DNA of 64,000 nucleotides from Ulota crispa (Eukaryota; Streptophyta; Bryopsida; Orthotrichales; Orthotrichaceae): NCBI GenBank assembly GCA_963920765.1, contig OY987249.1, positions 19,130,483 to 19,194,482 on the forward strand, written 5' to 3'. The notes beneath the pieces were generated by a model that was not told where the DNA came from, made no database searches, and saw only the letters and a list, made by a program, of their open reading frames with translations. How positions within the stretch are numbered: the stretch's first letter is position 1; each line of letters starts with the position of its first letter. Positions 29,001-32,000 of the stretch are shown here, one piece after another. The position numbers were made by a program, and so were the translations under genes.

Positions 29001-32000
29001 TGCAGACAAATTCATACTCGTCTTGATGGCCTCAATTGCAAACACTGCAATAGTCCTCACACAAGCACTTTGTCAGCTTTGCATTCTTCACAATATTGTT
29101 CACACATGTGGCATTATCTAGGTTTAAGGTCGCCTTGCACTTGCATTCCACATAAATTACCTTGAATTTGTGACTAATCATGACGCTTCTCCACCGATAA
29201 CCCTGCATGGGTCGTGAAGTTTATACTATGGATGATGAACAAAGTGCTTCAAGGTGAGGCTTCATCAAAATAACAAATGCTGGAATCTTCTAAACAAAGT
29301 GATGATTGATTTATTTGTACAAAGCTGTAAGCGTACACAGGCAGTTAGAAGGGTTAGTCTAATTAGAGGCAAGGCTGAAATGGCAGACAACACTATTTTG
29401 TCACCGTAAATCGGTGAGCTATGAGCAGCAGTGAGCCAAAATTTTGTGAGGTGGAATTGATTTTGAGCTCAAAATCAATGGAAAACTAAAGAAACAGTAA
29501 GTTTTTCAAAAGATGAAAGTTTAAAATTCATTATTATTATTATAGGGCCCTACCACTTATGTACACAATTATAGGTGACATTCAATATTCTAACAAAAAT
29601 ATCCAAGCTCATTGCTCATGGCTCACAAATTTTTGTTCATGATATAGCATTGCTAAAACTCCAAAAGTTGCAATTCGCTTGTTAATTTGGGAAAAAGTCT
29701 TTCCCAAAACACGGATACTATTTTTTAGCAGAACGGAGATGGTAGTGGGCTGGTATCATTCCCATCCTGGATTTGGTTGTTGGTTGTCTGGCGTGGATAT
29801 TAATACTCAACAGGTAATGCAGTCCTCTACCGAGTTTGGCGCTTTTATTTTGTGTCCTGACTGTGCAACAGCTGACGGCCATGTCATAATTATACTTTAG
29901 CAGATTGACAGTAGGGCTTACCGTTTGATTAGTCAGCTTGCAGGTAGACAGGTTTGTTACTTTGTTTTGACATTTAAAAGTGTTGAGGGCAATAGATATG
30001 GGGAATGATGTTGTGGATTATTCGCTAGAGTTTTTGTTGGGAGACAATATTCAACTTAAGCTATGAAATCATTCGCAGCTTCTTCATGAATGGCTTTACG
30101 TTGTTGGTATTCTGAATTGAAATAATTGTGGACGCTCAGAGTTTCGAAGCGTTGAACCAAAGGGCAGTTGCGGTAGTGGTGGATCCGATCCAGAGTGTTA
30201 AAGGCAAGGTTGTGATAGATGCCTCTTTCCCAAAACACGGATACTAAACTTTGCATTTGTGAGAATATTTTGATGACTTAAAGTGAGGTTTTTGATAATT
30301 CCTTCCAGATACCGCATCACTGATAAGATACTTCATCATTGATGTAAGGTCTCGAAGAAATCATCATAAAATTCACTACAAATCACCCAAAAAAATTCTT
30401 AAAAGTGAAAAATTCAAAAGTCCCACAACCGGTGTTTTTTCCCAAATTAACAAATATTGTGTTAACTGCAACTGGATTGATTTGCTTCAAGGGAAGGTTG
30501 TAAGAATCCTGGGTGTCACATTGGACTACTTGTCCATTTGCTTGTCCGTCTACCCAAAGTGCCCAATTGAGCTCATGTCCATCCGGTGTAATCAGTTCAT
30601 ATTTGATTTCAAAAAATGTTAAAAAATGATAAAAAGAATACTTACTTCACACATGCTAGTGCCACTCATTGTTGCCAACATGAAATCAAAACGTAAATTT
30701 AAAGCCATGTCATGTAGTAAAAATGAAAAAATAGTAATTTGATTCTTCCTTTTTCAAATCAAAAACCCAAAAAATGGCCTAGAAAGCAAGAGTGAAGAGA
30801 CAAGTACCAACTATTTGGTGCACAGCCAAATCTTGCCCAAAGTAACAAGCAACATGACATACTAGTGTTGCGGTTGCAGAGATAGCAAGAGTTGCGAGAG
30901 AGCATGTAAGAGAGTCTGCGTACCGTCCCTGTCGATGGTGTTAGCTCGCCGTTCATCAGAGACAGAGTAAAGCTCCAAGGCATTCAAGATGGGCCCGTTC
31001 GGCGACAAAGGAGCAGGTGAGAGACGAAGCAGAGTGGTGGGGGTGATGACCCGGTCCCAGAACAACCAGGTATTGCGAATAAACGAGCCGTTGTTGTCGT
31101 TGTAAGGGTTCAAGAGCACGGGGGTGCCGGTGTTGGTGCCGACGTCGACGTAAAACTGCCGGGAGGTCGCCGTGGCCGACGAGTCCAGCTCTGCGAAGTG
31201 GACGATCACGGACGCCAATGGGTACGTCGTGGCGGAGCCTGGCAACGTGTAGTACGACGTCAGGTTGCCTGCGCTAGAGACCGCTGATTGCATCACTTTC
31301 GAAGGCACTAGGAATGCTTCGGTGCTGACACTCCTGGCCACTTCCACGGCTTGCACGGGTGTTGCTGACGGGGCTAAGTAACTGGACTTGGCGCCCTCTG
31401 GGTGCCAGAAACGGTCGTACGCATCATCTGGGTATCTGCAACAACGCCAAACATAAATCCACAAAGGCAGTGAGAGTTCCAAAAACACTAGAGTGAAAAA
31501 AAAAAACAGCTTACAGACAACGTAACACAAACGCACAACAATAACATGCTCAGCCACCAGATACCATTTCCGCAATGCCATGGCAGGTTCAAGTTTCAAG
31601 ACAACTAGGCAACCCACTCATTAGAATCTACATTACTTCACCTCCTTTTTGCGAGGTCTTCAATGAACAAAAAAAGTACAGACTGATGCAGATAACCTAC
31701 CATCTTGTCCATGAACTTGCAATCCACTTGCTAGTCTACACTTTTTTGTAATCGTACATAACCTTATTGATTAAAGGGAAAATTTCAGGGATACCCCTGA
31801 AGTTTGCTTTTTTTTACAGATACCCCTTGGTTTTTAAGAAATTACACAAATATTACCCTTGGTCCATCATTTTCAGGCGTTTGTTCTATTGTGCAGGGCT
31901 GCATGCCACTTCTTTCTGCATAGTGTGCACGCTGCTTGCTCTCCTTGTTTTAACATTGGTCAGGAAGGAAGTAGCGTGCCTAAAAAAACAAACGCCTGAA

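What the first reader, a model, noticed from the sequence alone, without database searches (positions are those of the whole stretch)
29698..30246. Intron-containing RPN11 piece inserted with a 23-bp target duplication
A 503-bp fragment carrying two RPN11 exons and the intron between them sits in an inverted-repeat element, itself in a receptor-kinase intron and antisense to it. The retained intron rules out retroposition. The perfect 23-bp direct repeat suggests patch repair of a staggered break using a genomic template.
Basis: partly seen in the sequence, partly recalled or inferred. Interest (0 to 1): 0.7.

Follow-up and report, generated by a model that had tools for sequence, protein, structure and literature searches.

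The report
RPN11 gene scrap patched into transposon
A 503-base piece of a plant proteasome gene, intron included, was copied into an old inverted-repeat transposon inside a receptor-kinase intron and left a 23-base duplication, most likely as a scar of break repair, a kind of event already known in plants.

Summary
A perfect 23-bp direct repeat (29698-29720, 30224-30246) brackets 503 bp that match one other place found in the 274.8-Mb genome: the intact, six-exon RPN11 gene on another contig (499/506, no gaps). With three shared junction bases the copied stretch is 13 nt of intron 2, exon 3, intron 3 and the first 85 nt of exon 4. In 17 of 18 fetched relatives of the host inverted-repeat element the target is uninterrupted. 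Both 23-mers lack the same 5-8 bp that 16 comparable copies have, so the repeat duplicates this copy's own target; the source locus lacks it. No other copy of the fragment was found, against transposon capture with spread. There is no poly(A) tail and no convincing LINE nick site. The junctions share 2 bp and 1 bp with the donor.

Best reading: a staggered break in an old MITE, filled in at both ends and joined through DNA copied from RPN11. Template switching at a stalled fork gives the same letters; an unspliced-RNA intermediate is unlikely but not excluded. This is filler-DNA or patch repair, documented in plants: a clean new member, not a new kind.

The parts
29698..29720 (+). left copy of the 23-bp duplicated target
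   Evidence: 23/23 identical to 30224-30246
29721..30223 (+). inserted fragment of RPN11 (503 bp; sense strand = plus)
   Evidence: with 3 shared junction bases 499/506 identical, gap-free, to G000:C1:6329814-6330319 (-) = L002:1501-2006 (-)
29732..29813 (+). copy of RPN11 exon 3 (82 nt, JAMM motif region)
   Evidence: exon 3 at gene coordinates 1514-1595; Pfam JAB hit in the ORF 29643-29900 at E 1.8e-11
29814..30139 (+). copy of RPN11 intron 3 (326 nt, retained)
   Evidence: gene coordinates 1596-1921
30140..30223 (+). copy of the first part of RPN11 exon 4 (84 nt; 85 with the shared T at 30224)
   Evidence: gene coordinates 1922-2006
30224..30246 (+). right copy of the 23-bp duplicated target
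29679..29696 (+). left arm of the host inverted-repeat (MITE-like) element
   Evidence: I7, 18/18 complementary to 30436-30453
30436..30453 (+). right arm of the host inverted-repeat element (the family's similarity runs on to about 30465)
29045..30923 (-). 1879-bp intron of the receptor-kinase gene that holds the element and the insert (1353 bp without the insert and one repeat)
   Evidence: GT...AG ends, exons join in frame (...[18 protein letters not shown]...); no transcript data

Best explanation
A staggered double-strand break (two opposed nicks 23 bp apart) opened an old, already diverged inverted-repeat element in the kinase intron. One end, ending ...GGATACTA, annealed by its last two bases to the intron-2/exon-3 border region of the RPN11 gene on another chromosome-size contig and was extended about 503 nt along the genomic DNA. 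The new strand then let go and was joined to the other end, which began with the same 23 bases. Fill-in of both overhangs left the 23-bp target as a direct repeat around the patch. Shown: the single genomic donor, the copied intron, the target duplication with this copy's own deletion, and 2-bp and 1-bp junction overlaps. Inferred: that the break was staggered rather than a stalled fork, the polymerase and ligase used, and the direction of copying. The patch is most likely without function: one whole exon and a truncated one, antisense to the host gene.
For: Two places in the genome match the fragment, itself and the RPN11 gene, out of 2 candidates, both scored (the tool skips very common words). 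A protein search with RPN11 (13 candidates, 11 matches) finds the exons of one RPN11 gene, the insert, and three places at 30-53% identity that I take for other JAMM proteins. The alignment is gap-free across two exon-intron borders. Of the 20 other copies of the host element listed, 18 were fetched; 17 of these 18 run through the target without a break, and the 18th, L058, is split by another member of the same family. Between fixed anchors this copy is 5-8 bp shorter than each of 16 copies that show the anchors (7 bp in 9 of them; counted by eye from the sequences printed; L034 lacks the anchor, L058 is split), and both 23-mers share this. The longest word of the 23-mer found in the 3.5-kb source locus is 9 bp. 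The insert's ends carry no inverted repeat (longest shared word of the end 30-mers 4 bp). The element is 74-80% identical to its relatives while the insert is 1.4% from its donor (K2P 0.0140), so the element was long resident when it broke. Passages: tandem duplications, ascribed to repair of adjacent nicks and not to slippage, make up at least half of new rice insertions over 10 bp (PMC7971508); fill-in of 3' overhangs before joining (PMC8355091); a gene-bearing fragment used as filler while target duplications are filled in (PMC3445842); filler DNA in plants, also from separate donor molecules (PMC4423477, PMC10923293).
Against: The patch is long and comes from another chromosome-size contig. 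The rice fillers after transposon excision in PMC4423477 were 1-123 bp, the maize fillers cited in PMC2686159 were 1-131 bp, and PMC7156093 says templates lie more often in cis. The shortest overhang tested for fill-in in PMC8355091 was 43 bp, longer than the 23 needed here. Many fillers come with deletions; none is visible here. One locus cannot tell a staggered break from template switching. No empty allele was available: the uninterrupted copies are paralogues.
Confidence: 0.68

Rival explanations
1. Replication template switching (FoSTeS/MMBIR type). A fork stalled in the hairpin-forming element; the nascent strand switched to RPN11 through TA, copied 503 nt, and returned 23 bp upstream of where it left, so that 23 bp were copied twice.
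For: The element without the insert folds into one long hairpin (-37.8 kcal/mol, DNA parameters; 100 dinucleotide shuffles: mean -20.8, SD 3.5, lowest -31.1) with an 18-bp terminal stem. One unpaired base separates the stem from the start of the 23-mer. The 2-bp and 1-bp junction overlaps fit as well as they fit break repair.
Against: There is one template and one return, with no chain of switches. Rice insertions with duplications are ascribed to repair of adjacent nicks and not to replication slippage (PMC7971508 passages). Nothing in the letters favours it positively over break repair.
Confidence: 0.2
2. Reverse transcription of unspliced RPN11 pre-mRNA, or of antisense RNA, followed by insertion at a LINE-type nick or by capture at a break. 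In the antisense direction the fragment ends ...GCTAAAAAA next to the repeat.
For: A 23-bp target duplication and the short A run (part of the donor's own polypyrimidine tract read in antisense) are formally compatible. Intron retention excludes only spliced mRNA. In the antisense direction the last two bases of the nick context (AA) fit.
Against: There is no poly(A) tail beyond donor sequence and both ends are arbitrary. The nick context would be AAGA/CT (sense) or ACTA/AA (antisense), read, against TTTT/AA (consensus recalled, from no call). No other RPN11 retrocopy was found (13 candidates scored).
Confidence: 0.08
3. Transposon capture: the inverted-repeat element picked up the RPN11 piece (Pack-type element) and moved it.
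For: The fragment lies between the element's two arms.
Against: One copy found besides the donor gene. The 23-bp repeat directly flanks the fragment inside the element, and a capture-and-move history does not produce that. 17 of 18 fetched sister copies lack any insert at that point, and the 18th holds another element.
Confidence: 0.02
4. Excised circle integrated by homology, as proposed for transposed Arabidopsis genes with flanking repeats (PMC2869330): repeats present at the source carry the piece over.
For: Direct repeats of 15 bp or more flank 11 of 25 transposed Arabidopsis genes with known donors, against 6 of 102 controls (PMC2869330 passages).
Against: The 23-mer is absent from the source locus: longest shared word 9 bp within 3.5 kb.
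Confidence: 0.02

Closest known systems
Filler-DNA or patch insertion at plant double-strand breaks (gene-fragment movement; Wicker et al. 2010 Genome Res, known to me from citations in PMC3445842, PMC4274372 and PMC7156093 and from recall)
   Same: Unspliced genomic DNA copied from an unlinked gene, donor kept, 1-2 bp of overlap at the junctions, insertion in or near a transposon.
   Different: Here a 23-bp target duplication is present and no flanking deletion is seen. The insert is longer than the rice and maize fillers whose sizes I read.
Patch-mediated tandem duplications at paired nicks (Vaughn and Bennetzen 2014; Schiml et al. 2016; both seen as reference entries only, described in PMC7971508 passages)
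   Same: Short direct duplication of the target that fits two nicks tens of bp apart.
   Different: The two copies are not head to tail but are separated by 503 bp of foreign gene DNA.
Templated sequence insertions described in human cells (Onozawa et al. 2014, recalled, from no call)
   Same: Insertion of a distant genomic segment, some classes with target duplication.
   Different: The class with target duplications there is tied to L1 reverse transcription with poly(A) (recalled); here there is no tail and no such nick site.
Pack-MULE or Helitron gene capture (recalled)
   Same: Gene fragment with intron inside a repetitive element.
   Different: No spread found, and the fragment is bracketed by its own target duplication within one element copy.

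Membership tests
DNA-templated patch or filler insertion at a break | Insert is a copy of genomic DNA from elsewhere, donor intact | tested here: met
   one donor found, intact 309-codon RPN11 gene
DNA-templated patch or filler insertion at a break | Target was uninterrupted before | tested here: met
   17 of 18 fetched element copies contiguous at the target (paralogues; no empty allele was available)
DNA-templated patch or filler insertion at a break | Zero to a few bp of microhomology at the junctions | tested here: met
   TA on the left, T on the right
DNA-templated patch or filler insertion at a break | No hallmarks of a mobile element at the insert's ends | tested here: met
   Longest inverted word shared by the two end 30-mers is 4 bp; no poly(A); one copy besides the donor
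Patch-mediated duplication from paired nicks | Direct duplication made of target sequence, absent from the donor | tested here: met
Patch-mediated duplication from paired nicks | Dependence on end-joining factors and fill-in synthesis | not testable with these tools
   needs an experiment
Processed retroposition | Introns removed | tested here: not met
   326-nt intron 3 retained
Processed retroposition | Poly(A) tail at one end | tested here: not met
   only donor-encoded letters at both ends
LINE-type target-primed insertion | Nick at TTTT/AA (consensus recalled) | tested here: not met
   Read: AAGA/CT (sense), ACTA/AA (antisense; only the AA half and one T fit)
Transposon gene capture (Pack-type) | Same fragment with same ends in several element copies | tested here: not met
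   2 matches in all, insert and donor
MITE (host element) | Short non-coding element with terminal inverted repeats, many copies | tested here: met
   249 bp between arm ends without the insert; 20 other copies among the places listed (40 of 3054 first-look candidates scored, for a query that also held a second repeat family); 18 aligned
MITE (host element) | Target-site duplication that assigns a superfamily | tested here: inconclusive
   Element edges, read by eye, gave no consistent duplication; superfamily not assigned

The most novel reading that the evidence does not exclude
Hairpin-forming MITEs act as break or fork-stall sites in this genome. The nick or stall falls where the terminal stem ends, and repair there draws in host-gene DNA in trans, so that MITE-rich introns gather gene scraps (possible raw material for antisense RNA or new exons). 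Here the duplicated target begins one unpaired base beyond the 18-bp stem, and the one other interrupted copy seen (L058) is split within the same part of the element, though by a transposon.
Probability: 0.1. Interest if true: 0.55.

Novelty: new member of a known kind. Interest (0 to 1): 0.25.

Why it matters
It is an unusually readable fossil of break repair: donor, target, duplication length and junction overlaps can all be read to the base. Such cases show how host-gene fragments with introns reach transposons and introns without transposon capture or retroposition. They also warn annotators not to count every gene fragment in a MITE as a Pack-type capture. By itself it changes no view of plant break repair.

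Tried and rejected
Transposon capture: rejected, one copy besides the donor found. Carry-over of repeats from the source: rejected for the 3.5 kb examined. Processed retrocopy: rejected, intron present. Chance repeat: rejected (with the caution given in the observation check).

Search for sister events. The window plus 61 held loci (197.6 kb, mostly chosen by similarity to the flanking repeats and so not random; L001, L003, L033 and L063 left out as copies of the window) were scanned for perfect direct repeats of 15 bp or more, 60-2500 bp apart (recounted). There were 105 pairs; 73 had similar flanks, as in tandem arrays, and 32 did not. Of the 32, 17 were 17 bp or longer, the finding itself among them. 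Of those other 16 I followed 2. Window 7565/8025 (17 bp) encloses a high-copy element. L041 1140/3198 (24 bp): about 630 bp of its interval are a high-copy element at 90-94% identity. Neither showed a single-donor patch. The other 14 were not followed. No second event of this kind was found, and the sample is too small and biased for a rate.

Clustering of differences: 2 of 7 lie in the first 15 bp (p 0.017; 0.06 if either end counts), too weak to claim error-prone initiation. Exons 1 of 167, introns 6 of 339, Fisher p 0.43. Rfam: no match in 28500-32500 at gathering scores. The automatic length count was unreliable (its pattern matched too early in several rows); I counted from the printed sequences. 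Literature searches that were answered; of papers I saw listings and passages, no whole text. Vaughn and Bennetzen 2014 was not held.

Full report
WHAT IS THERE. The 23-mer TCTTTCCCAAAACACGGATACTA occurs at 29698-29720 and again at 30224-30246, identical in all 23 positions. Twenty first-order Markov copies of the window gave no perfect direct repeat of 17 bp or more at 60-2500 bp spacing, low-complexity repeats excluded; the real window has five, of which this is the longest. In the window's own genome (274.8 Mb, 157 contigs, unnamed; plant by its gene content, my inference) the stretch has two matches from two candidates, both scored: itself, and G000:C1:6329814-6330319 on the minus strand. 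That match is 499 of 506 positions without a gap.

THE DONOR. The second place is an intact gene of six exons, as read from splice borders and frame, whose joined reading frame is 309 codons without an internal stop. Its best PDB match is an RPN11 chain (8amz_V, E 1.1e-183), and Pfam finds JAB and RPN11_C domains. A protein search finds five of its six exons as strong hits and exon 3 inside a weaker one, the insert as two hits, and three more places on C5, C1 and C9 at 30-53% identity that I take for other JAMM proteins. RPN11 thus appears single-copy here apart from the insert. In gene order, with the three shared junction bases, the copied stretch is 13 nt of intron 2, exon 3 (82 nt), intron 3 (326 nt) and the first 85 of 177 nt of exon 4. 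Both ends are arbitrary with respect to gene structure.

THE TARGET. The host is an inverted-repeat element with 18-bp perfect arms (29679-29696 and 30436-30453), of MITE type by size, arms and copy number. Rejoined in a script without the insert and one 23-mer, it measures 249 bp between the arm ends. One search listed 20 other copies of it and fetched 18; the search favours copies that are intact to the right of the target. In 17 of 18 the similarity runs through the target without a break, at 74-80% identity. The 18th (L058) is split by another member of the same element family. Between fixed anchors this copy is 5-8 bp shorter than each of the 16 copies that show the anchors, and both 23-mers share that change (sequences, counted by eye). 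The repeat is thus a duplication of this copy's own target. The source locus shares no word longer than 9 bp with the 23-mer.

THE NEIGHBOURHOOD. The element lies in a 1879-bp intron of a receptor-like kinase on the minus strand. The exons on either side join in frame with GT and AG borders. Two pieces of a malectin-like domain lie upstream on that strand. Two kinase pieces lie downstream, one above and one below Pfam's cut-off. That all these belong to one gene is inferred. Without the insert and one repeat the intron is 1353 bp. RPN11 sense is on the plus strand, antisense to the kinase gene. Two other high-copy families flank the element.

AGE. Seven differences in 506 positions give K2P 0.0140. 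The element's copies differ from this one by 20-26%, so the element was old and probably immobile when it was hit, which speaks against a break made by its own transposase. The two 23-mers are identical, as expected at 1.4% divergence.

MECHANISM. The junctions share TA (left) and T (right) with the donor. A break with 23-nt overhangs, one end extended on RPN11 DNA and then joined to the other filled-in end, accounts for every base. In passages I read, tandem duplications ascribed to repair of adjacent nicks make up at least half of new rice insertions over 10 bp (PMC7971508). 3' overhangs are filled in before joining in CRISPR-nickase experiments, with overhangs of 43 bp or more (PMC8355091). 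Gene-bearing filler introduced while target duplications are filled in is described as a route of gene duplication (PMC3445842). Filler DNA, also from separate donor molecules, is seen at plant breaks (PMC4423477, PMC10923293). Points against a simple match: the fillers measured in rice and maize are at most 123 and 131 bp, and templates are said to lie more often in cis (PMC7156093), whereas this one is 503 bp and in trans.

RIVALS. Template switching at a stalled fork leaves the same letters. The element's hairpin (-37.8 kcal/mol; 0 of 100 shuffles as low) and the start of the 23-mer one unpaired base past the terminal stem would fit it, but this is one case. Transposon capture and repeat carry-over fail their tests.

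VERDICT. Observation confirmed; interpretation supported in its core and overstated in two steps. It is a clean, recent, fully readable case of a known class of event. Interest is low to moderate.

Noticed in passing
L002, gene orientation 1686-1733 (intron 3 of RPN11); copy in the window at 29904-29951: Intron 3 of the RPN11 gene holds a 48-nt stretch bounded by AG and GT and open in the reading frame ([16 protein letters not shown]), a possible cassette exon of 16 codons. No transcript data or relatives were available to test it.
   Followed up: partly
L058:1200-1500: A copy of the host element family has another member of the same family inserted into it near the same part of the element where the RPN11 piece sits in the window copy.
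   Followed up: partly
window 31767-32089: A second inverted-repeat element (nested arms, 88-96% complementary) in a neighbouring stretch of the same kinase gene.
   Followed up: no
window 7565-8041: A 17-bp perfect direct repeat encloses 443 bp that hold a high-copy element at about 7744-7993.
   Followed up: partly
L032:3175-3254: A 20-bp perfect direct repeat at 60-bp spacing near the end of the locus, a possible short patch or the start of a tandem array.
   Followed up: no
window 29727-29733: Two of the seven differences from the donor lie within the first 15 bp of the copied stretch, including a change of the second base of exon 3 (p 0.017).
   Followed up: partly
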